Virus record (IMG/VR): IMGVR_UViG_3300010370_006650
Span: 1 to 58,619 of that record
Direction: 5' to 3' (one strand)
From: a virus
Length of the DNA stretch: 58,619 bases
Shown here one piece after another: positions 15,679 through 55,400 of the stretch. The position numbers and the translations under genes were made by a program. A model generated the notes under the pieces. It saw nothing but the letters and a program-made list of their open reading frames with translations. It made no database searches and had not been told where the DNA came from. How positions within the stretch are numbered: position 1 is the stretch's first letter; each line of letters opens with the position of its first letter.

Positions 15679-15975
15679 ATGGCTTTTAGTCGATATCAAA
15701 GAGATGACACTAGTTCAAATGGAAAGGGTCTCACCGTCGCGCAAGCTACGATCGTGCTTCGACAAGCAATTCGTAATGGATTTATTTTTCCTATAAAGAC
15801 AATAACGGTGACGCAAAGTGACAGGCTGGATACTTTGTCGGGTGAGTTATATGGCGATTCTCGCTATTGGTGGGTATTAGCGGCGGCGTCCAATATCGGG
15901 TGGGGTTTACAAGTTCCGCCAGGAACTATAATTAGTGTATTGGACCTGAATGTAGTTGAAAGGTTGGTCGGTTGA
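15679..15975 (+). CDS. Baseplate wedge-type protein with LysM-like fold (gp53-like)
   Basis: This 98-residue protein contains a LysM-like core: SDRLDTLSGELYGDSRYWWV, then ASNIGWGLQVPPGT (about residues 50-90). T4 baseplate protein gp53 has a LysM-type domain and small LysM proteins are standard in contractile baseplates, where they help join tube initiator and wedge. SD AAAAGGAAAAAG precedes the ATG. Its stop overlaps the next start (TGATG), so the two are probably co-translated. The call is firm for the fold, less so for the exact wedge position. Confidence 0.75.
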   Translation: MAFSRYQRDDTSSNGKGLTVAQATIVLRQAIRNGFIFPIKTITVTQSDRLDTLSGELYGDSRYWWVLAAASNIGWGLQVPPGTIISVLDLNVVERLVG

Positions 15976-38974: not shown

Positions 38975-40063
38975 ATGCAAAGAACGCTTTGTTTCGATGA
39001 CGTGTTGCTCGTTCCTCAGTACTCAGATATCGAGTCTAGATCGACAGTAGATTTGTCCGTCGCGGGATTTGATGATCCAGATGCAAGGTTAATGCCTGAA
39101 TTGCCTGTCTTGACTTGTCCGATCGTCGGTTCTCCGATGGACACGGTTATGAGTCCTGAATCTGCGATTATTTTATCAGAGATCGGTGGATTTGGAGTGT
39201 TTCACCGTTATTGTACGATTGACGATGCCAAGAAATCGTATCTTAAATTTGTCGAATTAGCAACAGATACTGACGCTCCCCAAAATGCTATGGTTGCAAT
39301 CGGCGCGACTGGAGATTACCTAGAACGCGCTCATGAATTATACGAAGCAGGTTGCAGGGCTTTTTGTATCGATGTTGCTCACGGCCATCATGCTTCGGTA
39401 AAAAGTGCATTAAAAGAAATGCGTTTGAAGTTTGGTGATAATGTGCACATTATGACAGGCAACGTTGCAACGCTTGAAGCGTTTAACGATCTTGCAGACT
39501 GGGGATCGAATTCAATTCGTGTCGGAGTAGGTGGAGGATCGATGTGTTCAACTCGTATTCGGACAGGCCATGGTATCCCTACGCTACAATCAGTTATGGA
39601 TTGTGCAAAATCCGATAGGGATGTTTTTATTGTTGCCGACGGAGGAATCCGTAATTCGGGCGATGCCGTTAAGGCTCTAGCTGCAGGAGCCGACATGCTG
39701 ATGTTGGGTTCAATCCTCGCAGGCCACGACGAGTGCCCTGGCGAATTAATCGATGATAAGGGATTGACTTATCGATCTTCCGGCGCTGCCTTGGGCGTCC
39801 CATTGTTTAAGAAATTTAGAGGTATGGCCTCTCGTGAGGCACAATTAAATTGGCGTGGCCGAGTTTCTGTCGTAGAAGGCGAATCTACGATGGTTCCATA
39901 TAAGGGTCGCATGCTGAATACGATCGCAGACCTTTTAGAAGGAATTAGATCTGGATTGTCTTACTCTGGCGCTCGCACGATTAGAGAACTTCGCGGTAAG
40001 GCTAAGTTCGTCACAGTGACGCCTCAAGGCGTTCAAGAAAATATACCACACGGTAAACGGTAA
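38975..40063 (+). CDS. IMP dehydrogenase / GMP reductase family protein
   Basis: The 362-residue protein has a TIM-barrel IMPDH/GMPR layout: FDDVLLVPQYSDI at the N-terminus, CPIVGSPMDTV near 48, the catalytic loop GGGSMCSTRIRTGHG with Cys191, VADGGIRNSGD near 210, and a KFRGMASREAQ segment near 280. There are no CBS domains, typical of GMP reductase but also of short IMPDHs, so the reaction (IMP to XMP, or GMP to IMP) cannot be settled by eye. It could steer purine pools for the phage. The gene has its own repeat-flanked promoter and ends one base from a convergent gene. Confidence 0.82.
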   Translation: MQRTLCFDDVLLVPQYSDIESRSTVDLSVAGFDDPDARLMPELPVLTCPIVGSPMDTVMSPESAIILSEIGGFGVFHRYCTIDDAKKSYLKFVELATDTDAPQNAMVAIGATGDYLERAHELYEAGCRAFCIDVAHGHHASVKSALKEMRLKFGDNVHIMTGNVATLEAFNDLADWGSNSIRVGVGGGSMCSTRIRTGHGIPTLQSVMDCAKSDRDVFIVADGGIRNSGDAVKALAAGADMLMLGSILAGHDECPGELIDDKGLTYRSSGAALGVPLFKKFRGMASREAQLNWRGRVSVVEGESTMVPYKGRMLNTIADLLEGIRSGLSYSGARTIRELRGKAKFVTVTPQGVQENIPHGKR

Positions 40064-40883: not shown

Positions 40884-41888
40884 ATGGCTAAAGGATTAGA
40901 CGTCGGTACATCATTTATCGTTCTTGCTTCTGAGAGCGCAAAAGGCAAAGTTGTTTACAAGGATTTTCGCGATGCCTTTTACGTTATCAAACCTTCGACA
41001 CCTATCGCGACGAAGATGATTGAGAAGGGTTTGGCAGGAAAGACATTCGTTAAAGACTCCGACGGTTCTTTTATCATTCTGGGTAAGGATGCAATCGAGA
41101 AGGCAGTAGAAAGAAATGATTCGGCGAAGCGACCAATGTATAAGGGCGTTGTCTCATCGAAAGAAAAAGACGCCAGAAGAATTTTGACGTACATCCTTAA
41201 AGAGGTAGCTGGCACTCCTACGGAAGCTGGTGAAAAATTAGTCTTTTGCGTACCAGCTCAACCTGTTGACCAAGAAGACGAAGACTTTGACGTTGGATAT
41301 CACGAAGACGTTATCATCAAGTTATTGACCGAAGTTGGTTACGCTGCTCGCGCAATTAACGAAGCAGAAGCTCTATGCTATTCTGAATTAGAAAACGACG
41401 ACTATACTGGCGTTTGTCTGTCGTGGGGCGCAGGCATGGTCAACGTTTGCGTGATGCTTAACGGTGAGCCTGTTGTTAAGTTTTCTACTACAAAGTCAGG
41501 AGATTGGGTGGATCGCATGGCCGCGGTAGCGACTGGCGAATCTGATTCAATTGTACAAGCCGAAAAGGAAAACGGCGACTTCGTAGTTGGTGAACCAAAC
41601 GAAAATCAGGTTTTATCGGCCGTCGCAACCTATTACGACCGTCTTATCGATTACACGACGAAGCAACTCGCCTCTGCGATGGACGGTCACAAGTCAATTC
41701 CAAAGTTTAAGGATGCTTTGCCTGTCGTCGTGGCAGGTGGAACTTCCAAGGCCAAGGGTTTCGTGGATCTATTTGCCAAGAAACTTGAGGAAAATGGATT
41801 CCCTCTACCCGTCAAGGAAGTTCGTCATGCAGCTGATCCTCTGCACGCAGTCGCTCGTGGCTGTTTAATTGCGGCGCAGGTAATGTAA
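40884..41888 (+). CDS. Actin-like / Hsp70-superfamily ATPase
   Basis: The 334-residue protein has the actin/Hsp70 ATPase layout: phosphate-1 loop LDVGTSFIVLA at the N-terminus, connect-1-like CVPAQPVDQ near 126, phosphate-2 CLSWGAGMVNVCVM near 178, and adenosine motif VVAGGTSKAKGF near 285, ending in ARGCLIAAQ. It might form filaments like ParM, AlfA or phage Alp proteins, or act as a DnaK-like chaperone without a substrate domain. It is short for DnaK. A membrane protein gene precedes and a DNA methyltransferase gene follows. No ParR-like or other partner was recognised. Confidence 0.72.
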   Translation: MAKGLDVGTSFIVLASESAKGKVVYKDFRDAFYVIKPSTPIATKMIEKGLAGKTFVKDSDGSFIILGKDAIEKAVERNDSAKRPMYKGVVSSKEKDARRILTYILKEVAGTPTEAGEKLVFCVPAQPVDQEDEDFDVGYHEDVIIKLLTEVGYAARAINEAEALCYSELENDDYTGVCLSWGAGMVNVCVMLNGEPVVKFSTTKSGDWVDRMAAVATGESDSIVQAEKENGDFVVGEPNENQVLSAVATYYDRLIDYTTKQLASAMDGHKSIPKFKDALPVVVAGGTSKAKGFVDLFAKKLEENGFPLPVKEVRHAADPLHAVARGCLIAAQVM

Positions 41889-46287: not shown

Positions 46288-46776
46288 ATGAAAACAGGCG
46301 GTATTATCGTTGAGGGCGCTGAACAGCAAGGTAAGTCTACTTTCTGCGACAAATTGTCAAAACGACTCGGTGTAGAAATCATTCATATGCACAAAGGCTA
46401 TGGTTTCGTCGACGGCAAGTTCGATTACCTGACAGGTTATTTTTACGACATCGATCGCCGACCTGGTCCTTTCATCTACGATCGCTCGTATGTTTCCGAG
46501 CTGGCTTATGGCAAGGTTTTTCAGCGAAACAATATAACACCAGAAATTCTGCAAGGAATTGAATCTCGCTTTCAGGATCTAGGTTATTTTCTTGTCCTAC
46601 TGGAACTAAACTTGCCGTGGATCGATCGAGCAGAGACTGTCACTCAAGAGCAGAACGAAAAAGTCAAAAAGGCTTACCGAGAAGTTTTTCCGCAACTAAA
46701 GATCGACAAATTCCTGATAAATCCATCGGATGACGCCGTAGAATTTATCGCTAAACAATACGAGGCCAGAAGATGA
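46288..46776 (+). CDS. P-loop nucleotide kinase (dNMP or modified-nucleotide kinase)
   Basis: The 162-residue protein has a P-loop EGAEQQGKST (residues 9-18) and a DRSY motif in FIYDRSYVSELAYGK near 67, as in dNMP kinases. It is short and keeps the lid region small. A thymidylate kinase is already present at 33469. This one lies between dnaE and the ATP-grasp gene, in the modification run, so I suggest it phosphorylates a modified dNMP (like T4 gp1 for hydroxymethyl-dCMP) or a base hydroxymethyl group, as phage hydroxymethyluracil kinases do. It begins one base after the dnaE stop with GGAGG and ends in an ATGA overlap. Confidence 0.72.
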   Translation: MKTGGIIVEGAEQQGKSTFCDKLSKRLGVEIIHMHKGYGFVDGKFDYLTGYFYDIDRRPGPFIYDRSYVSELAYGKVFQRNNITPEILQGIESRFQDLGYFLVLLELNLPWIDRAETVTQEQNEKVKKAYREVFPQLKIDKFLINPSDDAVEFIAKQYEARR

Positions 46777-48032
46777 AAATTTTGCTATTGACCTATGGTA
46801 ACGAGAGTTCTATCGAGATGATTCGCAGCATCGCGGAGCTGAATACTCACGAAGTATACGGTTGCCACTATGATACGATCAACGCAGGCCTCGCATACCT
46901 GAACAAAAATTACATTGTCGAATGCCCTAATCCTTTCAAGACAGCGCCCCAATTCTTGAAGTGGTTGGACAACTTCGTCATCGACGCAGATATCGACAAG
47001 GTTTTTGTTACAAATTGCAAGATGCTTAAATTCTTGTACGACAACTGGAACGATGTTGGTTGTCACGACAAGCTAGCGATCCCTGGCAAGGATAATTTGG
47101 CTCCATGTTTATTCAAAAATAAGTTATACGAACTATTACCGGATATTTCTCCGAGAGTTTTTAAGAGTCATGAAGAAGCACCAACCGACGTCGATCTCTT
47201 CGCCAAGCCTTGTTATAGTTCCTCTGCCGAAGGCGCTCGAAAACTAAAGAACAATGTTGCTTCTTGGCAAAGCGTTACGACGGAAGATGTCGTGACCGAA
47301 TACCTACCAGGAGAAGAGTTCACGGTAGATTGTGTCTCTACTCCAGACGGCGACGTAGTAGACTGGAATGTGAGGCTTCGAGCTAGAATTAGGGATGGCA
47401 TTACTTCGTACGGTCGCTCGGCTCCCGAATATTGGGAGTTGATCGGTGAGCACGTTAAGACGATCGCTAAGAAGTTGAAACTACCCTACTTTTGGTTCGC
47501 TCAATTTAAGTTTGATTCTAATGGCGTTCCTAGGTTGCTCGAGGTTAACTGTCGAATTAGCGGTAGTTTTTGCATTACAAAGGCCTCGCGAAAGGATTAC
47601 GTCAAATTCGCAATGGCGGATTTCGCAGATGGAATTATCGTGAAGGGTCCTGCAGGTGGCCGTCATGCGATCGCTCGCCACATGAATGTCTTGCCAGTCG
47701 CAAAGAAAACTTGGGTGTGGGACATCGACGGCACAATCTGCACAGAAACTGGTGGTAACTATCACTTGTGCGAACCATTTACGGATGCTATTAAGAAGCT
47801 AAACATGTTGCACGATAGAGGCGACGAGATCGTTTTACATACCGCCCGTGGTATGAAGAGGTTCAACAACGATGTTTCGGCAGTTTACCAAAATCTTTAT
47901 GAACTAACCAAAAAACAATTAGAGGCGTGGGGTGTAAGATACGATAAGCTCATTATGGGCAAACCTTATGGTACGTTAGTCGACGCTGACGCTATTACAG
48001 TTGACGATCTACAATTAGAGGAGACAAAATGA
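46773..48032 (+). CDS. ATP-grasp ligase fused to HAD-family phosphatase
   Basis: The 419-residue protein has two domains. Residues about 100-290 are ATP-grasp: LFAKPCYSSSAEG near 142, VTEYLPGEEFTVD near 174, and the metal site E257-N259-R261 in LLEVNCRISGS. Residues about 313-415 are HAD-like: DIDGT with Asp317 and Asp319, LHTARG near 357, and GKPYG followed by VDADAITVDD near 395-410. ATP-grasp enzymes join an acyl group to an amine or thiol through an acyl phosphate; HAD enzymes remove phosphates. It overlaps both neighbours by ATGA (kinase before, carbamoyltransferase after). Substrates are unknown. A modified sugar or base route is inferred. Confidence 0.8.
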   Translation: MKILLLTYGNESSIEMIRSIAELNTHEVYGCHYDTINAGLAYLNKNYIVECPNPFKTAPQFLKWLDNFVIDADIDKVFVTNCKMLKFLYDNWNDVGCHDKLAIPGKDNLAPCLFKNKLYELLPDISPRVFKSHEEAPTDVDLFAKPCYSSSAEGARKLKNNVASWQSVTTEDVVTEYLPGEEFTVDCVSTPDGDVVDWNVRLRARIRDGITSYGRSAPEYWELIGEHVKTIAKKLKLPYFWFAQFKFDSNGVPRLLEVNCRISGSFCITKASRKDYVKFAMADFADGIIVKGPAGGRHAIARHMNVLPVAKKTWVWDIDGTICTETGGNYHLCEPFTDAIKKLNMLHDRGDEIVLHTARGMKRFNNDVSAVYQNLYELTKKQLEAWGVRYDKLIMGKPYGTLVDADAITVDDLQLEETK

Positions 48033-49798
48033 AAACCACAACGGCATTGATGCTTACGCTTGGACACAATTCTTCTGCAGTTTATTTCGATGGAGAAAAA
48101 GCCGTCGGGTACGAAGAAGAGAGACTAAACAGAGTTAAGTCTTCAAGCGCTTATCCGCGTTTGTCTCTTGAGGAGATCGAAAAGAACGTAAAGATTCAAC
48201 CCGGAAGTTACGTTTTTGTATCACACTGGTTTGATCGTTTAAACTTCGACGAAACCTCTAGCAAGTATTTTGATAAAGAGCACTTCGATTCTTTCGTCGC
48301 TAAGTACTCTTTGCGTAAAGTCATTTTGAGCGAAGGATTCACTCATCACGATGCCCACGCATGGTCAGTCGTTTCGTTCCTGAGAAATAAGCGGCAACCA
48401 CGCCACGATGCGCTACTTTCGCCGGGTGATAAGTTCCACGTGATTGCTGCAGATGGTTATGGAACCTTCCAGGAAGTCTTTAGCGTTTATGAATTCGACG
48501 CTAACGATAATTCTTCTAGACTGAAGTTAGTCGATAGGTTCCATGGCTACAACTATTCTTTGGGACTTATGTATCAATATGCTACTTCGTATTGCGGCAT
48601 GAAGGAGAACCAGGACGAGTATAAGTTCTTGGGATACGAAACGCATGTTACGAATCTTTTATCTCCAAGCTCGATTGATCTTTTGAGAGATATCGCTCGC
48701 CAAAAATCAACGAACATGTTCAATTCGATGATCTCTACGAAGGATTGTAGATCATCTACCTGGCAAGACCCAAACAACCTCGTCAACTTGAAGTCGCTGT
48801 CGGAAACAAAAGAATACTGGACAAAACACTTCGACGAAGTATTGTCCGCCGTATCACCAGGAATTTCAGGTCGCAACCTGAGAATCGTCATCGGTCACTA
48901 TATTCAAGAATTGATCGAGGGCGTTGTCACAAAGATGATCGACCATTATTCTATTAAACACTTAGCTTTGGCAGGTGGAATTTTTTATAACGTTAAGTTA
49001 AACAACAAGGCTTTACATAAAGTGCCTGGATTGTTCTCGGTCGTGCCACTGGCTGGCGATCAAGGTTGCGGCGTCGGTATGTACGAAGCTCATGTTGGTG
49101 GATTCGAATGGGGCGATTTAAAATGGGGGCCGCGACCACAGTTCGCTACGTGGCAATCGAAGGTCTCGACTGAAGACTTATCAAGGTATGGTAATCATAT
49201 TCAATATTACTCGGCAGCAGACAGAGAGCGCGCCGTCGAAGATACGGTCAGCTCGCTCGAAGCCAACGAATTAGTCAACGTAGTAAAGTGCAAAATGGAG
49301 TTTGGTCCAAGAGCGTTGTGCAGCACGACCACGCTGGCTATTCCAACTACATCCAATGTCGAGATTATTAACGACATTAACGAACGCGATACCGTTATGC
49401 CGATGGCGCCAGTTATGTTGAGTTCCGCCGTCGATAACTTCTTCGATACCAGCTATAGCAATCGTGTAATTGGTTCGGATAGATTCATGATCTTAACGTA
49501 CGACTATGTGTCTCCAGATCTTGAAAACTACGGAGGTATCGCTCACAAGTATCCTGACTACGACGTGTGGTCTGGTCGCCCACAGCTAATCGATTCAGAC
49601 GATGCCTTTATGACATCCGTACTTTCTAAGCTAAGCCATAAGTCTAAGGCGCTGATCAATACTAGTTTCAACGCACACGGTCGACCAATCGTTTACGCGT
49701 TAGATAGCGTATTGGATAGTTTTAAGTTTGAATTCGATAAGGCTATGGAGCTTGGTCATAAGCTTCCCCTTCTCTATCTTTGCGACTTTGATGGTTGA
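48029..49798 (+). CDS. Carbamoyltransferase (NodU/CmcH/TobZ family)
   Basis: The 589-residue protein is full length for the family. It has LGHNSSA near 12, EEERLNR near 30, THHDAHAWS near 108, DGYGTFQEV near 148, LALAGGIFYNVKLN near 313, GDQGCGVGMYEAH near 344, EFGPRALCSTTTLAIP near 425, N-IN-R-T-MPMAPVML near 445, and ALINTSFNAHGRPIV near 545. Such enzymes use carbamoyl phosphate and ATP to make a carbamoyl adenylate and transfer carbamoyl to a hydroxyl. The acceptor could be a hydroxymethylated base or a sugar attached to it. It is tightly coupled (ATGA) to the ATP-grasp gene. Confidence 0.9.
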   Translation: MKTTTALMLTLGHNSSAVYFDGEKAVGYEEERLNRVKSSSAYPRLSLEEIEKNVKIQPGSYVFVSHWFDRLNFDETSSKYFDKEHFDSFVAKYSLRKVILSEGFTHHDAHAWSVVSFLRNKRQPRHDALLSPGDKFHVIAADGYGTFQEVFSVYEFDANDNSSRLKLVDRFHGYNYSLGLMYQYATSYCGMKENQDEYKFLGYETHVTNLLSPSSIDLLRDIARQKSTNMFNSMISTKDCRSSTWQDPNNLVNLKSLSETKEYWTKHFDEVLSAVSPGISGRNLRIVIGHYIQELIEGVVTKMIDHYSIKHLALAGGIFYNVKLNNKALHKVPGLFSVVPLAGDQGCGVGMYEAHVGGFEWGDLKWGPRPQFATWQSKVSTEDLSRYGNHIQYYSAADRERAVEDTVSSLEANELVNVVKCKMEFGPRALCSTTTLAIPTTSNVEIINDINERDTVMPMAPVMLSSAVDNFFDTSYSNRVIGSDRFMILTYDYVSPDLENYGGIAHKYPDYDVWSGRPQLIDSDDAFMTSVLSKLSHKSKALINTSFNAHGRPIVYALDSVLDSFKFEFDKAMELGHKLPLLYLCDFDG

Positions 49799-49800
49799 AC

Positions 49801-50466
49801 ATGATTATCGTAAAACAGCCTGAATTTGAGAACGACGACTATCTGTTTAGGATTGAAGCGCATAAATTACCAAAAGCCGGAGAAGCTCTGTCTTTTCTTA
49901 AGAAGATCGATCCGTTTGCAGCGGATTACTATTGGTCGAAGAGACAGGCCTTTCTGACGCAAGATACCAATCCAAGCGTTTTTTCTAAATTTGTCCAGGA
50001 TAAACCTAGCTTGAGGAGCTTGTCCGACTTAGACGCGTTGGACTCTACGATCTATACTGTCGCTTGTGAAAGAGAGAATAATCTTGGTTATCGAGATATT
50101 CTTATGAATTTAAAGCGACACCTGTTGCAAAAACCTGAGACTCGTCGTTGCATGTTAAGATTCGCCAATAGCTATGAAAGATACCATATCAGCGAGTCTG
50201 CAAGACCCCTAGATGTGACTTGTCTAAGTTTAATTCATTATCTAAAGCAAGGACCTAAACTAGTTTTTAGGGCGTCAGATGTAAGAAACGAATTGTTGGT
50301 CGATATCTTGACTATCAACGAATTTTTTATCGATCCTGTTTATAATTCTAATTTCAAAAATTACCAGATGTCAGTATATTCTTCTACCGCACAGTGTGTT
50401 TCAAGCTGGAATAACTTTGTAAATTTATTGCAGCGTTCGTATAGCGTCGGAGGAGAAAATAGATGA
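49801..50466 (+). CDS. Truncated thymidylate-synthase-fold protein
   Basis: The 221-residue protein aligns by eye with the ThyA homologue at 52425. TRRCMLRF matches SRRAVIHI (phosphate-binding Arg pair), LDVTCLSLIHYL matches LDVPCTLSLQFFL (nucleophile Cys141), FRASDVRNELLVD matches MRSSDVILGLAYD (Asp168 at the pyrimidine-recognition position), and MSVYSSTAQC matches LSASLHVYERH. The N-terminal third looks unlike ThyA and the C-terminal folate region is missing. It may be a second base-modifying enzyme or a regulatory paralogue. Start is ATG 49801 (the TTG at 49795 overlaps the previous stop). It overlaps the epimerase start by 4 bases. Confidence 0.62.
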   Translation: MIIVKQPEFENDDYLFRIEAHKLPKAGEALSFLKKIDPFAADYYWSKRQAFLTQDTNPSVFSKFVQDKPSLRSLSDLDALDSTIYTVACERENNLGYRDILMNLKRHLLQKPETRRCMLRFANSYERYHISESARPLDVTCLSLIHYLKQGPKLVFRASDVRNELLVDILTINEFFIDPVYNSNFKNYQMSVYSSTAQCVSSWNNFVNLLQRSYSVGGENR

Positions 50467-51452
50467 AATGTTTGATAACGGGCATCGCAGGATTATTGGG
50501 CGCAAACTTTTCGAGACATCTACTAGAAAAAAATTACAAAGTAGTCGGAATTGACGATTTAAGTGGAGGATACGAAGAGTTTGTTCCACCCTCGGCAATT
50601 TTTTATAAAGTCGATTTAACTCGCGCAGATGCAGTCAATCAAATCTTCGAAAGAGAAAGCCCAGATTGCGTTTTCCATTTCGCTGCTTACGCCGCAGAAG
50701 GATTGAGTCCTTTCGTCAGAAATTACAACTACACCAATAACGTTATCGCTTCTGCGAATGTAATCAATGCTGCTATTAACAACAACATCAAGAAAGTCGT
50801 CTATACTTCTTCGATGGCGGTTTATGGTACAGGTAATCCACCATTCGTAGAAGAACAATTGCCGATTCCAGAAGATCCCTATGGCATCGCGAAGTATGCT
50901 GTAGAAATGGACTTTAAGTTGGCGCGCGAAATGTTCGGCCTGCGATACAGTATTGTTCGACCACATAACGTTGTTGGTGTTTACCAAAACATATGGGATC
51001 GCTATCGTAACGTAATCGGGATATGGATTAGACAGGCTATTGCAGGCGAACCACTTACGATATATGGAGACGGCACACAAGTCCGCGCCTTTTCCGACAT
51101 CAAATTCTACATGGAACCATTTGAGAAATTGATGACCGATCACGATGGTGAAATCTTTAACATTGGCGCCGACAAGTATGTTACGATAAACGAGGCCGCC
51201 GACGTGGTCCTAGACGTTGCTAAAGAATTTGGTATTAACGCGACTAAGGTTCATTTAGAAAAGAGAAATGAGGTTCATGCTGCTTATTGCGACCATGCGA
51301 AGGCTCGTAATCTTTTGAACTTTAACGACGATACTAACCTAAGAGAAACAGTAAACACGATGTTCGGTTGGGCGCTAACTCAACCTGTTCGCGACACGAA
51401 GCGTATGAAGTACGAGATAGAAAAAAACATTTATTCTTTTTGGAAAAAATGA
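50463..51452 (+). CDS. NAD-dependent sugar-nucleotide epimerase/dehydratase 1
   Basis: The 329-residue protein is an extended short-chain dehydrogenase: GIAGLLG near 7 binds NAD, TSSMAVYG near 117 and YGIAK near 138 give the catalytic Ser and Tyr-Lys, and RPHNVVGV near 163 fits epimerases. It would act on a UDP- or dTDP-sugar. Only 14 bases separate it from a second epimerase, and it overlaps the TS-like gene. Two such enzymes in a nucleotide operon suggest production of an unusual sugar donor, as in phages with arabinosylated hydroxymethylcytosine, though no glycosyltransferase is in the window. Confidence 0.85.
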   Translation: MKCLITGIAGLLGANFSRHLLEKNYKVVGIDDLSGGYEEFVPPSAIFYKVDLTRADAVNQIFERESPDCVFHFAAYAAEGLSPFVRNYNYTNNVIASANVINAAINNNIKKVVYTSSMAVYGTGNPPFVEEQLPIPEDPYGIAKYAVEMDFKLAREMFGLRYSIVRPHNVVGVYQNIWDRYRNVIGIWIRQAIAGEPLTIYGDGTQVRAFSDIKFYMEPFEKLMTDHDGEIFNIGADKYVTINEAADVVLDVAKEFGINATKVHLEKRNEVHAAYCDHAKARNLLNFNDDTNLRETVNTMFGWALTQPVRDTKRMKYEIEKNIYSFWKK

Positions 51453-51465
51453 GGTATAAGTTAAC

Positions 51466-52428
51466 ATGAAAATGAAACGCGTATTAGTTACGGGTGGCGC
51501 TGGATTTATTGGTAGCAATTTAGTAAAAGCTCTCGTCGATAGGGGCGCAGAAGTCGACGTCGTCGACAATATGTCGAATGGACATAAAGAGTTTGTGCCA
51601 GCTGGTTGTAACTTGTTCGTTGCTGATTTTGCGTCGGAAGATATTCTGTCGAAGATCAAGGCAAAAACATACGATGTAGTTTTTCATTTGGCTGCAATTC
51701 CTCGTGTTAGTTACTCGGTTGAACATCCTGTTGAAACGCACGAGACGAATGTGAATGCTACATTGAAGTTGATCGATACATGTAGAAACAACATTAGACG
51801 ATTTGTCTTCGCTTCATCATCGTCAGTATACGGTGGCGCCGATGCTTTGCCAACGCCAGTTTCTTCTCCTAAAAACCCAAAGTCGCCATACGCTTTGCAG
51901 AAATCTATCATAGAAGACTATTTGTCTCTATATCACCTGCTGTACGGTCTCGACTCAGTAAGCCTTAGATTTTTTAACGTTTTTGGACCTAATCAGTTAG
52001 GTGATTCTCCGTACGCTACTGCAGTGTCAGCCTGGTTGACTGCTATTCACCATGGAAGATCGATGCGATCTGATGGAGATGGTTCACAATCGCGCGATAT
52101 GTGTTATGTCGATAACGTCGTAGACGCTTGCATAAGAAGCGCTGAGGCTGATGCTGAGCTAAGAGGAGTTGCGTTGAATGTTGCTTGCGGCGATCGTAAC
52201 ACGAACAAATCAATACTAGAATTTCTTTTGTCTAAGTATCCAAACGCCAAGTACCATGATGCTCCATGGAGACCAGGCGACGTGATGCACACGCAGGCAG
52301 ACATTAGCAAAACTCATGAACTTCTTGGATACGTTCCTTTGGTTCGTTTCTGGGAAGGATTAGAACGAACGATGAAATGGTACGAGGAAAACTGGTCTTT
52401 AATCAGCTCATTGAGTCTATCTAAATGA
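51466..52428 (+). CDS. NAD-dependent sugar-nucleotide epimerase 2 (GalE-like)
   Basis: The 320-residue protein has GGAGFIGSN near 11, HLAAIPRV near 69, SSSSVYGG near 117 and YALQK near 139, followed by RFFNVFGPNQ near 168 and GDGSQSRDMCYVDNV near 205, very typical of UDP-glucose 4-epimerase and related enzymes. It is more like cellular GalE than the upstream protein, which looks more diverged. It overlaps the dCMP hydroxymethylase-like gene by ATGA. The sugar is not known. Confidence 0.9.
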   Translation: MKMKRVLVTGGAGFIGSNLVKALVDRGAEVDVVDNMSNGHKEFVPAGCNLFVADFASEDILSKIKAKTYDVVFHLAAIPRVSYSVEHPVETHETNVNATLKLIDTCRNNIRRFVFASSSSVYGGADALPTPVSSPKNPKSPYALQKSIIEDYLSLYHLLYGLDSVSLRFFNVFGPNQLGDSPYATAVSAWLTAIHHGRSMRSDGDGSQSRDMCYVDNVVDACIRSAEADAELRGVALNVACGDRNTNKSILEFLLSKYPNAKYHDAPWRPGDVMHTQADISKTHELLGYVPLVRFWEGLERTMKWYEENWSLISSLSLSK

Positions 52429-53417
52429 AAGCATATCATAATTTTACCGAAGCGTACGTCGATATCATTCGTGATGTCTATACGTCGCCAGAGTTTACTT
52501 CATCGCCCCGCGGCATGAAAGTAAAAGAAATTTTAGGTTATCAATTTAAGATTCTAAATCCAAGAAATCGAATCCCTTATGTTAAGGGAAGAGACTTTTC
52601 AATTCACTATATGGTTGCTGAATTACTTTGGTATTTAAGTGGCAACGATTCGACTAATTGGATTTCGAATTATTCGACATTCTGGTCTAAGATTTCAGAC
52701 GACGGCGAAACAGCAAATAGCGCTTATGGTGCTAGAATTTTTAAGTCACACGATCGTATCGCAAAAACTGTCGACGAAAATTGGACGCAATGGAATTACG
52801 TGGTCGAAGAACTAAAGAAAGACCCAGACTCTCGTCGCGCCGTAATTCACATACGTTCTCCCCAAGATTCGATATTGGCGCAACTCGATGTTCCTTGCAC
52901 TTTGTCTCTTCAATTCTTTTTGCGTGGAGATAAGGTTTACATGGTTACCTCGATGCGATCGTCAGATGTTATTCTTGGATTGGCGTACGACGTACCTGCT
53001 TTTACGCTCTTTCAAGAACTTCTCGCTTTACAGCTAACTAAGGAACTAGGTCGACCCATTGGCTTAGGCGACTATACTCATCTCAGCGCTTCTCTACACG
53101 TTTATGAGAGGCACTTTAAAATGGTCGAAAAAATATTGGATGAAGATACTCGGCGAGATTATCGAGACGTTTTAGAGATGCCGCAGATGCCCGACAATCC
53201 ACCCCTTGGGAGGCTAATGTCGCTCGAAAACGATATTAGGAATCTCAATGACGAACAAAAACTAGTAGATTTCGAAATTGGGTTTGAAGATTACTGGAAG
53301 GATTGGGCAAAAGTGCTGGTTTCTCATCGCTTACAAAAGCTAGGTAATGTTGGGCTTGCCAATCAGTCGCTTCTTTCCACGAACTTTGAAGGTTATAAAT
53401 ATTTTGTAAAAGAGTGA
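52425..53417 (+). CDS. ThyA-family enzyme, predicted dCMP hydroxymethylase
   Basis: The 330-residue protein has the thymidylate synthase fold: SRR phosphate-binding pair near 137, nucleophile Cys158 in DVPC, RSSDV near 178, and the substrate segment LGLAYD. Asp189 lies 31 residues after the Cys, the position of Asn177 in E. coli ThyA (Cys146 plus 31) and of Asp179 in T4 dCMP hydroxymethylase gp42 (Cys148 plus 31). Asp there favours cytosine over uracil. With thyX present, it most likely makes 5-hydroxymethyl-dCMP (or 5-methyl-dCMP). It is followed by thymidine kinase and dCMP deaminase genes in the same operon. Confidence 0.8.
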   Translation: MKAYHNFTEAYVDIIRDVYTSPEFTSSPRGMKVKEILGYQFKILNPRNRIPYVKGRDFSIHYMVAELLWYLSGNDSTNWISNYSTFWSKISDDGETANSAYGARIFKSHDRIAKTVDENWTQWNYVVEELKKDPDSRRAVIHIRSPQDSILAQLDVPCTLSLQFFLRGDKVYMVTSMRSSDVILGLAYDVPAFTLFQELLALQLTKELGRPIGLGDYTHLSASLHVYERHFKMVEKILDEDTRRDYRDVLEMPQMPDNPPLGRLMSLENDIRNLNDEQKLVDFEIGFEDYWKDWAKVLVSHRLQKLGNVGLANQSLLSTNFEGYKYFVKE

Positions 53418-53420
53418 AAC

Positions 53421-53981
53421 ATGAATCCGACTTTTACGATTTATACGGGTCCGATGTTTTCTGCCAAGACGACATCGCTTCTTTCGGTCTTGGATCGATA
53501 CAAATACCAAGGGAAAAAGATCGTTGCATTTAAACCGCAACTTGACGATCGATATAGCGTAGACAATATATCAACGCACGGTGGCTGGAAAGTTCCAGCA
53601 ATTTGTGTTAAAGCAGGTAGCGATATTTTAGAAAAATTAGCAGAGCTGGACTTTAACCCACACGTCATCGCCGTAGATGAAGCTTTCATGATTCCTGGCG
53701 TAGCTGAGGTTCTTATTTGGCTGTATAGAAGTGGTTATACGATAGTCGCGTCTAGCTTAGATTTGTCTGCCACGGGCAAGCCCTTCGAGGAAATTGAAAA
53801 GATGCTGCCTTGGGCTACGAAGATTGAAAAGTTAAGTGCGGTTTGTGTTGTTTGCAATAAAGATGCTTTTTATACCTACAAAAAACAAACGGGTGGAGAT
53901 GAAATCGAAGTTGGTGGCGTTGAATTATACGAACCGAGATGTTCGCGGTGCCATCCGTTAATTATCAATCCGGAGGCCTGA
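53421..53981 (+). CDS. tdk: Thymidine kinase (TK1-like)
   Basis: The 186-residue protein has GPMFSAKTT (residues 10-18; family GPMFSGKTT), AVDEAFMI near 89 and a C-terminal zinc site from CVVC near 147 and CSRC near 174. It phosphorylates thymidine (salvage) using ATP. Lasso-type sequence near 160-170 (GGDEIEVGGVELYEPRC) fits. It follows the ThyA homologue by three bases and abuts dCMP deaminase. Confidence 0.9.
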   Translation: MNPTFTIYTGPMFSAKTTSLLSVLDRYKYQGKKIVAFKPQLDDRYSVDNISTHGGWKVPAICVKAGSDILEKLAELDFNPHVIAVDEAFMIPGVAEVLIWLYRSGYTIVASSLDLSATGKPFEEIEKMLPWATKIEKLSAVCVVCNKDAFYTYKKQTGGDEIEVGGVELYEPRCSRCHPLIINPEA

Positions 53982-54422
53982 ATGGAATTGATACGTCCTT
54001 CTTGGCCAGAAACATGGATGGCCATTGCTCATCTTGTTGCGCAAAGATCTTATGATCCAACTTTAAAAGTAGGCGCGATCATTGTGTCAGAAGACAATTC
54101 TCAAATGTTGTCTATTGGTTATAATGGTAATTATCGCGGGGGGCCCCACGAAAGAGAATCACAAACGCCTGGACAAAGTGGTTTTATACACGCTGAAGTA
54201 AATGCTTTGGTTAAGTGCGATTTTAATTTTCACAAAAAGAAGCACATGTATTTAACACATTCACCATGTCGTCATTGTGCAAAATTAATTGTGAATGCAG
54301 AGATATCTACAGTTATATATGATATTCCCTATCGGGATGTTTCGGGACTGGAAATTTTAACTTCTGTTGGAATTAAGGTTTTTAATCTTAGTGATGCTAT
54401 AATTAACAATAAGACTTTATGA
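53982..54422 (+). CDS. dCMP deaminase
   Basis: The 146-residue protein has the deaminase zinc motif HAEVNAL near 69 and SPCRHC near 91, plus K-VGAIIVSEDN near 28 and GYNGNYRGGPHE near 45, as in dCMP deaminases. It turns dCMP to dUMP, feeding ThyX. It starts directly at the thymidine kinase stop and overlaps the next start. In T4, dCMP deaminase and gp42 compete for dCMP and set the ratio of T to modified C; the same logic may apply here. Confidence 0.9.
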   Translation: MELIRPSWPETWMAIAHLVAQRSYDPTLKVGAIIVSEDNSQMLSIGYNGNYRGGPHERESQTPGQSGFIHAEVNALVKCDFNFHKKKHMYLTHSPCRHCAKLIVNAEISTVIYDIPYRDVSGLEILTSVGIKVFNLSDAIINNKTL

Positions 54423-54700
54423 AAAATTTAACTGAAGAAGACATTATACGGGTCATGCGTGAGGAGTGGCAAGCAAAAGTTGCCGCCCTAACAGAAGAAG
54501 TCGATTTGACCTTTAAGGCTAAGGTAGATGGCGAAGACAAAGAAGTCATTTCTCAAGATCTAAAGGTTCGACACAAAAAGAGCCAGTTGTTGTATACTGT
54601 CGTTTCAGTTGGCCCTCGTGATATCGTACTTAAGACTCCTGAGGGCGAAGAATTTTTACTAGATAAGGACCAGTTGGAGGACGAATATGAGCTTGATTGA
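54419..54700 (+). CDS. Small tagged-type protein
   Basis: The 93-residue protein begins MKNLTEEDIIRVMREEWQAKV, a looser version of the shared tag. The rest is beta-rich and acidic (KAKVDGEDKEVISQDLKVRHKK, YTVVSVGPRDIVLKTPEGEEF), like a small SH3-type barrel. It overlaps both neighbours. Function unknown. Confidence 0.55.
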   Translation: MKNLTEEDIIRVMREEWQAKVAALTEEVDLTFKAKVDGEDKEVISQDLKVRHKKSQLLYTVVSVGPRDIVLKTPEGEEFLLDKDQLEDEYELD

Positions 54701-55400
54701 CAAGAACGAACTAGACAAAATGTTGAAGGGCTTTGTTAAACGAGCCGTAGATACGACGGTTACCTCCAAGCTTCCAAAGCTAGACGAGGCTTTTGTTCAT
54801 GAGCCTAAGCCATTCAAGCAGGTTTCTGAACTAGTTTCTCAAAAAACGAAAACAGCACACGAAGAGCTTTATAAGGGCTATGTCGAAACCTTTAATAAGG
54901 TTTCTGCAGAACTAGATACTGCAGAGCGTTCTGATGCTAATGCCCGACATTCCCAGTTTAGAAATTTAAAGCTCGACGAGACCTGGAATCTAAACGCGCT
55001 TTGGTTACACGAGCTCTACTTTGCTAATTGCTTTGATCCTCACAGCGAAATTGTAATGGATTCAATGTCGTACATGAGGTTGGAGCGAGACTTCGGCACA
55101 TTTGAAGATTGGCAGCGTGATTTCATGGCCTGCGCATTGGCTTCGCGCGCTGGTTGGGCAGTCTGCGGTTATCACATGTTCCTTAGAAAGTACGTTAACG
55201 TTATGATCGATGAGCACAGCGGAAATGTGCCCGTTGGTCTTTTCCCCATCATTGTTGTCGATATGTGGGAGCATGCTTATTATCGCGATTATTTGACCGA
55301 CAAGAAGTCTTACCTCATTTCGCAAATGCGTGAATTTAACTGGAACGTTATTGAAGACCGCGTGAAGAAGGCCGAAGGCATCGCGCAGGTGGTGAAGTGA
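54687..55400 (+). CDS. Fe/Mn superoxide dismutase-like protein
   Basis: The 237-residue protein aligns with the Fe/Mn-SOD fold. The C-terminal signature DMWEHAYYRDYLTDKKSYL supplies Asp192 and His196; WLHELYF supplies His108 (family W-NHxFYW), and AHEELYKGYV supplies His58 (family H--KHH--Y). FGTFEDWQRDF and RAGWAV also fit. All four metal ligands appear present. The N-terminus (MSLIDKNELDKMLKGFVKR) is an added helix like the tag group. It may be a true dismutase or a fold reused as a structural protein. It overlaps both neighbours in the operon. Confidence 0.75.
   Translation: MSLIDKNELDKMLKGFVKRAVDTTVTSKLPKLDEAFVHEPKPFKQVSELVSQKTKTAHEELYKGYVETFNKVSAELDTAERSDANARHSQFRNLKLDETWNLNALWLHELYFANCFDPHSEIVMDSMSYMRLERDFGTFEDWQRDFMACALASRAGWAVCGYHMFLRKYVNVMIDEHSGNVPVGLFPIIVVDMWEHAYYRDYLTDKKSYLISQMREFNWNVIEDRVKKAEGIAQVVK

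What the first reader, a model, noticed from the sequence alone, without database searches (positions are those of the whole stretch)
46288..54422. Candidate cytosine hypermodification cassette with carbamoylation chemistry
Nine overlapping or tightly packed genes form one unit: kinase, ATP-grasp/HAD, carbamoyltransferase, truncated TS-like protein, two epimerases, predicted dCMP hydroxymethylase, thymidine kinase, dCMP deaminase. They follow dnaE without a break. The hydroxymethylase would create a hydroxyl on C5; the carbamoyltransferase, ligase and sugar enzymes could then decorate it. Peptidyl nucleoside antibiotics such as polyoxin also use a carbamoyltransferase and an ATP-grasp ligase, so the chemistry has a precedent. 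A carbamoylated or sugar-linked cytosine would be a plausible anti-restriction modification. The exact product is not predictable from the sequence, and no glycosyltransferase is visible here.
Basis: partly seen in the sequence, partly recalled or inferred. Interest (0 to 1): 0.92.

Follow-up and report, generated by a model that had tools for sequence, protein, structure and literature searches.

The report
Phage cytosine carbamoylation gene cassette
These phage genes most probably make 5-carbamoyloxymethyl-cytosine, a DNA base modification whose enzyme was discovered in 2021, and they include an undescribed thymidylate-synthase-like protein that travels with that enzyme and may hint at a further, unknown step.

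Summary
The nine genes are real, at the stated coordinates, and under strong purifying selection. The carbamoyltransferase (CT) belongs to the clade of phage CTs that sit beside dCMP hydroxymethylase genes; this clade differs from ordinary CTs at what appear to be the three sites singled out for 5hmC carbamoyltransferase (eLife 2021, PMC8670742), an enzyme that makes 5-carbamoyloxymethyl-C in vitro. The hydroxymethylase carries Asp at the TS-177 position and other T4 gp42-like landmarks, and is closest to MilA. So the headline chemistry is already known. Relatives show which genes are core: HMase, CT, a P-loop kinase and the "truncated TS-like" protein (often plus dCMP deaminase). ATP-grasp/HAD and the epimerases are accessory to one lineage. 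The TS-like protein is the new part: no Pfam, PHROG or NCBIfam match, TS fold by prediction, catalytic Cys/Arg/Asp landmarks invariant in ten divergent sequences, folate- and sugar-side landmarks lost, and a CT nearby in all ten. Its reaction is unknown. A glycosylated or extended base is not excluded: RB69's arabinosyl-cytosine cluster shares the HAD and kinase families, and larger relatives carry glycosyltransferases elsewhere. No chemistry was measured here.

The parts
46288..46776 (+). P-loop nucleotide kinase of PHROG 761 (thymidylate-kinase-like); candidate 5-hydroxymethyl-dCMP (or modified dCMP) kinase; core gene
   Evidence: PHROG 761 E 3e-10; homologue of RB69 ORF045 in the arabinosyl-cytosine cluster (HMM E 4e-9); near CT/TS-like in L006, L007, L008, L015, L025, L026, L028; a different P-loop protein takes the place in L029 and L049
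46773..48032 (+). ATP-grasp ligase fused to HAD phosphatase; accessory gene
   Evidence: PF15632 3e-15, PHROG 1238 4e-18; HAD part related to RB69 ORF051 (PDB 9iqw); present in L006, L007, L008, L021, absent from L025 and L026 where the kinase abuts CT
48029..49798 (+). O-carbamoyltransferase of the 5hmC-carbamoyltransferase clade; core gene
   Evidence: Pfam PF16861/PF02543; tree and signature residues; isolate homologues in Xp15, Acinetobacter and Bacteroides phages lie near HMase genes
49801..50466 (+). undescribed truncated thymidylate-synthase-superfamily protein; core gene (ORF opens at TTG 49795)
   Evidence: no library match; hhalign to HMase 71%, E 4e-5; AF2 pLDDT 87.7, VIA Z 12.4 to MilA; invariant Y85, R115, C141, R157, D160, D168 in ten sequences
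50463..51452 (+). NAD-dependent nucleotide-sugar epimerase/dehydratase (epi1); only in nearest relatives
   Evidence: PF01370 8e-48; orthologue (79% id) only in L006/L017
51466..52428 (+). NAD-dependent nucleotide-sugar 4-epimerase-like protein (epi2); lineage-level accessory
   Evidence: PF01370 1.5e-53; PDB relatives include UDP-sugar 4-epimerases WbpP/WbgU and GalE; kept in L006, L007, L008, L025, L026, no tblastn hit in L015, L028, L029, L049
52425..53417 (+). dCMP (cytosine-nucleotide) hydroxymethylase, MilA-like; core gene
   Evidence: best PDB match MilA CMP 5-hydroxymethylase E 3e-44; Asp at TS N177, Thr at 147, E58/W80/Y94/C146/R166/D169/H207/Y209 kept
53421..53981 (+). thymidine kinase (nucleotide supply)
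   Evidence: PF00265 8e-39
53982..54422 (+). dCMP deaminase (nucleotide supply)
   Evidence: PF00383 9e-21, PHROG 174 1e-43

Best explanation
The cassette makes 5-carbamoyloxymethyl-cytosine (5cmC) for the phage genome. The MilA/T4-gp42-type hydroxymethylase turns dCMP into 5hm-dCMP. The P-loop kinase, with host kinases, raises it towards the triphosphate. The CT uses carbamoyl phosphate and ATP to carbamoylate the hydroxymethyl group, on 5hm-dCTP or on 5hmC in single-stranded DNA near the fork. The result would block cytosine-recognising restriction and defence nucleases. dCMP deaminase, TK and the ThyX, Tmk, dUTPase and MazG-like genes elsewhere in the window balance the pools. The TS-like protein binds or acts on a cytosine nucleotide in the same pathway. 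Epimerases and ATP-grasp/HAD are lineage-specific additions. Shown here: gene identity, linkage, residues. Taken from the literature: the CT reaction of a homologue in vitro. Inferred: everything about this phage's actual base, the kinase's substrate, the TS-like reaction and the anti-restriction role.
For: Eleven of 30 phage records with a CT hit match over their full length (33-37% identity); those inspected (Xp15, Acinetobacter MD-2021a, Bacteroides BF503P1) have TS/HMase genes within a few genes. The CT tree separates the window clade from cyanophage/RAS14 CTs with 100% support, and its W/G/R to aliphatic/C(G)/T signature falls on the spacing of TobZ W408/G421/R423, the three sites MetaGPA found most differential. 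PMC8670742 showed that a CT from a TS-bearing modified contig converts 5hmdC to 5cmdC and that CT/TS co-occurrence was found only in modified contigs. The HMase has the cytosine-specific Asp and differs from RB69's 5-hydroxy-dCMP synthase at W80, D169 and Y209. HMase and CT co-occur in nearly all loci compared.
Against: No chemistry measured. TobZ numbering was assigned by motif spacing, not by aligning TobZ itself. The extra genes (TS-like, epimerase, ATP-grasp/HAD) are not needed for 5cmC and may mean the base is extended further. The record is a 58.6-kb fragment.
Confidence: 0.78

Rival explanations
1. The final base is larger than 5cmC: part of the cytosine is glycosylated (the epimerase shapes a nucleotide sugar, the HAD and kinase prepare it, a glycosyltransferase encoded elsewhere attaches it), with CT acting on the base or on the sugar.
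For: epi2 is kept inside the cassette in five lineages besides the window; HAD and kinase have homologues in RB69's arabinosyl-cytosine cluster (PMC13390438); 175- and 298-kb relatives encode glycosyltransferases of PF00534 and PF00535 elsewhere.
Against: No glycosyltransferase of PF00534/PF00535 in the window and none evident within the cassettes; no TAGT in the window or four relatives; GTs of relatives lie in separate glycan-type clusters, partly by structural-looking genes; cassettes without a detected epimerase exist (L015, L028, L049).
Confidence: 0.2
2. The sugar genes and CT belong to a surface- or virion-glycan pathway that happens to sit beside nucleotide genes.
For: P-SSM2 has CT + sugar kinase + HAD + nucleotidyltransferases + epimerase near a tail-fibre-like gene with no HMase in the stretch seen; the HAD resembles capsule phosphatase EcbF/BcbF.
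Against: P-SSM2-type CT is in the other CT clade and lacks the signature; the window CT is locked to HMase and TS-like across ten divergent lineages, several with no sugar gene detected.
Confidence: 0.04
3. The HMase homologue is really a 5-hydroxy-dCMP synthase (RB69/AfhB type), so the modified position is a ring hydroxyl and CT makes a 5-O-carbamoyl cytosine.
For: RB69 ORF048 is a homologue at 31% identity, and its cluster shares two other families with this cassette.
Against: Landmarks W80, D169 and Y209 follow T4 gp42, not RB69 (A, N, F); the best solved relative by far is MilA, a hydroxymethylase (154 bits versus 54 for the hydroxylase); the characterised CT acts on 5hmC.
Confidence: 0.06

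Closest known systems
5hmC carbamoyltransferase / 5-carbamoyloxymethyl-C (MetaGPA, Yang et al. 2021, PMC8670742)
   Same: CT clade signature, pairing with a D177 TS-family enzyme and dCMP deaminase, phage setting
   Different: A term search of that paper finds no ATP-grasp or epimerase, and the passages read do not describe a second TS-like component
Xanthomonas phage Xp15 and Acinetobacter phages Effie/MD-2021a CT-HMase-dCMP deaminase loci
   Same: full-length CT homologue (33-37%), HMase/TS and deaminase within a few genes (Xp15, MD-2021a)
   Different: no TS-like gene found by HMM in Xp15 and MD-2021a, no epimerase or ATP-grasp hit
T4 dCMP hydroxymethylase gp42 + beta-glucosyltransferase
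   Same: hydroxymethylation at dCMP level, then a cap on the hydroxyl
   Different: cap is predicted carbamoyl, not glucose
MilA CMP 5-hydroxymethylase (mildiomycin)
   Same: closest solved sequence, alignment extends into the C-terminal region, same Asp
   Different: antibiotic pathway on CMP; here a phage setting with dCMP deaminase and kinase
RB69 5-arabinosyl-cytosine cluster (Mosigvirus)
   Same: TS-family C5 enzyme, kinase ORF045 and HAD ORF051 homologues near each other
   Different: 5-hydroxylase and arabinosyltransferase; no CT annotated in the stretch examined

Membership tests
5hmC carbamoyltransferase | Carbam_trans N and C domains | tested here: met
   PF02543 1e-8, PF16861 2e-23
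5hmC carbamoyltransferase | substitutions at the sites of TobZ W408/G421/R423 | tested here: inconclusive
   V/C/T in the window; T433 invariant in the clade, R in the three outgroups; aliphatic or T at 418 and C (G in Acinetobacter) at 431. Site mapping rests on motif spacing, and the paper's text does not print the residues found in modified contigs
5hmC carbamoyltransferase | genomic pairing with a D177 TS-family enzyme | tested here: met
5hmC carbamoyltransferase | activity on 5hmdCTP / 5hmC-ssDNA | not testable with these tools
   needs enzyme assay
dCMP hydroxymethylase | Asp at TS position 177 with catalytic Cys146, Arg166, E58, D169 | tested here: met
dCMP hydroxymethylase | makes 5hm-dCMP rather than 5-hydroxy- or 5-methyl-dCMP | not testable with these tools
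   residues favour hydroxymethylation
Thymidylate synthase superfamily (TS-like gene) | TS fold | tested here: met
   AF2 pLDDT 87.7; VIA Z 12.4, 192 residues, rmsd 3.9 to MilA
Thymidylate synthase superfamily (TS-like gene) | catalytic Cys, Arg pair, Arg166, Asp169 | tested here: met
   hhalign register and ten-sequence alignment; the second Arg of the pair is Lys in L029
Thymidylate synthase / hydroxymethylase activity (TS-like gene) | E58, W80, H207, Y209 and folate-binding C-terminus | tested here: not met
   these motifs are not seen in the family alignment and the protein is about 220 aa
RB69-type 5-hydroxy-dCMP synthase | RB69-like residues at 80, 169, 209 | tested here: not met
   window has W, D, Y; RB69 has A, N, F

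The most novel reading that the evidence does not exclude
The TS-like protein is a folate-independent C5 enzyme that works after carbamoylation. Its Cys adds to C6 of the carbamoyloxymethyl nucleotide, carbamate leaves as an activated group, and another nucleophile takes its place, so 5cmC would be an intermediate to an unknown hypermodified cytosine.
Probability: 0.1. Interest if true: 0.9.

Novelty: new variant of a known kind. Interest (0 to 1): 0.5.

Why it matters
It places an uncultured large-phage lineage (relatives up to 298 kb) among predicted 5cmC makers, gives residue markers that separate DNA-modifying CTs from glycan-type CTs, and brings out an undescribed TS-superfamily protein that was found only near this CT. 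If that protein has its own reaction, 5cmC may not be the end product in many phages, which a single LC-MS run on a cultured relative carrying the same gene pair could show.

Tried and rejected
Near-identity DNA search of the phage collection found nothing. tblastn of the TS-like protein against named phages gave no match, and its first single-sequence IMG/VR scan found none; the alignment-based scan worked. The ATP-grasp/HAD model was low confidence (pLDDT 62.7); its best folds are amino-acid ligases and carbamoyl-phosphate-synthase-like proteins, not decisive. The idea that the ATP-grasp supplies carbamoyl phosphate was not kept: a single ATP-grasp domain, and relatives do without it. The AGT search was uninformative because its control did not ring. 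The Lee et al. preprint on 5-hydroxycytosine was not held. BF503P1_00040, a second TS-family gene near CT, scored with the HMase HMM, not with the TS-like HMM. The Foldseek viral library and a CT structure model were not run. One HAD query was mis-framed and repeated.

Full report
WHAT IS THERE. The nine ORFs at 46288-54422 are confirmed and assigned by Pfam, PHROGs and NCBIfam. All lie on the + strand with 4-bp overlaps or gaps of 0-13 bp. dN against the L006 orthologues is 0.10-0.36 with dS above 1.6 or saturated. The operon-like packing continues past 54422 with a 93-aa gene and an SOD gene that also follow in the close relatives. The record is a 58.6-kb virus fragment with tape measure, UvsX, SSB, DnaB-type helicase and dnaE genes, so it is a tailed phage; relatives reach 175 and 298 kb.

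THE CARBAMOYLTRANSFERASE. In the phage collection only 11 of 30 matching records match over the full length: Acinetobacter and Bacteroides phages and Xp15, 33-37% identical. The loci opened for Xp15, BF503P1 and MD-2021a have TS/HMase-family genes within a few genes. The other records, mainly cyanophages, match over about half the length at 21-27%. The P-SSM2 copy sits in a sugar-gene cluster by a tail-fibre-like gene. A tree separates the two kinds with full support. The HMase-linked clade has V/I/T, C (G in Acinetobacter) and T where P-SSM2, S-T4 and RAS14 have I/W/L, G and R, plus MPxAP in place of RPFxx. The spacing of these positions equals that of TobZ W408, G421 and R423, which Yang et al. 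(PMC8670742) found most differential between modified and unmodified contigs. I did not have the TobZ sequence, so this mapping is an inference. That paper showed a CT from such a contig making 5-carbamoyloxymethyl-dC from 5hmdC in single-stranded DNA and from 5hmdCTP, with no activity on 5mdCTP or 5hmdUTP.

THE HYDROXYMETHYLASE. The closest solved protein is MilA, CMP 5-hydroxymethylase (E 3e-44, 154 bits), far ahead of T4 gp42 and of the phage dCMP hydroxylase AfhB (52-54 bits) (name of AfhB). RB69 ORF048 has A80, N169 and F209; Mosigvirus enzymes of this kind are described as 5-hydroxy-dCMP synthases (PMC13390438). So 5hm-dCMP is the likeliest product here.

THE CORE AND THE ACCESSORIES. 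tblastn maps: dnaE-kinase-ATPgrasp/HAD-CT-TSlike, then HMase and epi2 in either order, TK and dCMP deaminase in L006 and L007 (L008 without a TK hit); the same without ATP-grasp/HAD in L025 and L026; CT-kinase-TSlike-HMase in L015; deaminase-CT-kinase-TSlike-HMase in L028; CT-P-loop-TSlike-HMase in L029; HMase-CT-P-loop-TSlike-deaminase in L049, a contig binned with a Patescibacteria MAG and probably phage. The kinase, CT, TS-like and HMase are the shared core. A second group (L010-L014, Xp15, Acinetobacter, Bacteroides) has CT and HMase without the TS-like gene. epi1 is found only in L006/L017.

THE TS-LIKE PROTEIN. It has no match in three family libraries. Its HMM finds the HMases (E 1e-4), hhalign gives 71% and E 4e-5 over the catalytic stretch, and the AlphaFold2 model (pLDDT 87.7) is TS-fold, best MilA Z 12.4, with AfhB and T4 gp42 tied. 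Across ten sequences down to 32% identity Y85, R115, C141, R157, S159, D160 and D168 never vary; by the hhalign register C141, R157, D160 and D168 fall on ThyA C146, R166, D169 and N177 (as Asp), and R115/R116 on the Arg pair, R116 being Lys in L029. The E58/W80 and H207/Y209 motifs and the folate C-terminus are missing. It therefore looks like an active or at least nucleotide-binding cytosine protein that does not use folate in the usual way. The alignment-based scans of IMG/VR and of the GTDB genomes returned only loci with a CT nearby; the scans use short peptide patterns, so unlinked or distant members could have been missed.

SUGAR LINK. RB69's arabinosyl-cytosine cluster includes homologues of the kinase (ORF045) and of the HAD domain (ORF051, whose sequence matches PDB 9iqw). 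The 175- and 298-kb relatives have glycosyltransferases, but in separate clusters; neither of the two GT families tested is in the window. A glycosylated product is a live rival, not the leading one.

VERDICT. Nothing here measures a base.

Noticed in passing
window 40884-41888: Actin-family protein matching the archaeal Volactin model (PF25216, 228 bits, E 3e-67), far better than MreB, in a tailed phage.
   Followed up: no
window 54687-55400: Fe/Mn superoxide dismutase-like gene directly after the cassette, kept downstream in L006, L007, L008, L025, L026.
   Followed up: partly
L025 506-2047, L026 3207-3604, L021 5688-6997, L029 about 15707-15825: dnaE of relatives is interrupted by insertions, some with intein-like sequence, while the window dnaE is uninterrupted.
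   Followed up: no
window 38975-40063: IMP dehydrogenase gene in a phage (PF00478 E 8e-85).
   Followed up: no
L028 715-2394: CT reading frame carries one in-frame TAA at codon 243; error, pseudogene or recoding not resolved.
   Followed up: partly
L046 (Bacillus phage G gp313-gp319): D177 TS-family enzyme gp319 with an annotated alpha-glucosyltransferase and dCMP deaminase nearby, suggesting modified cytosine in phage G.
   Followed up: no
L044 9709-10095 (RB69 ORF051): Annotated as phosphoheptose isomerase but is a HAD protein whose sequence matches PDB 9iqw.
   Followed up: partly
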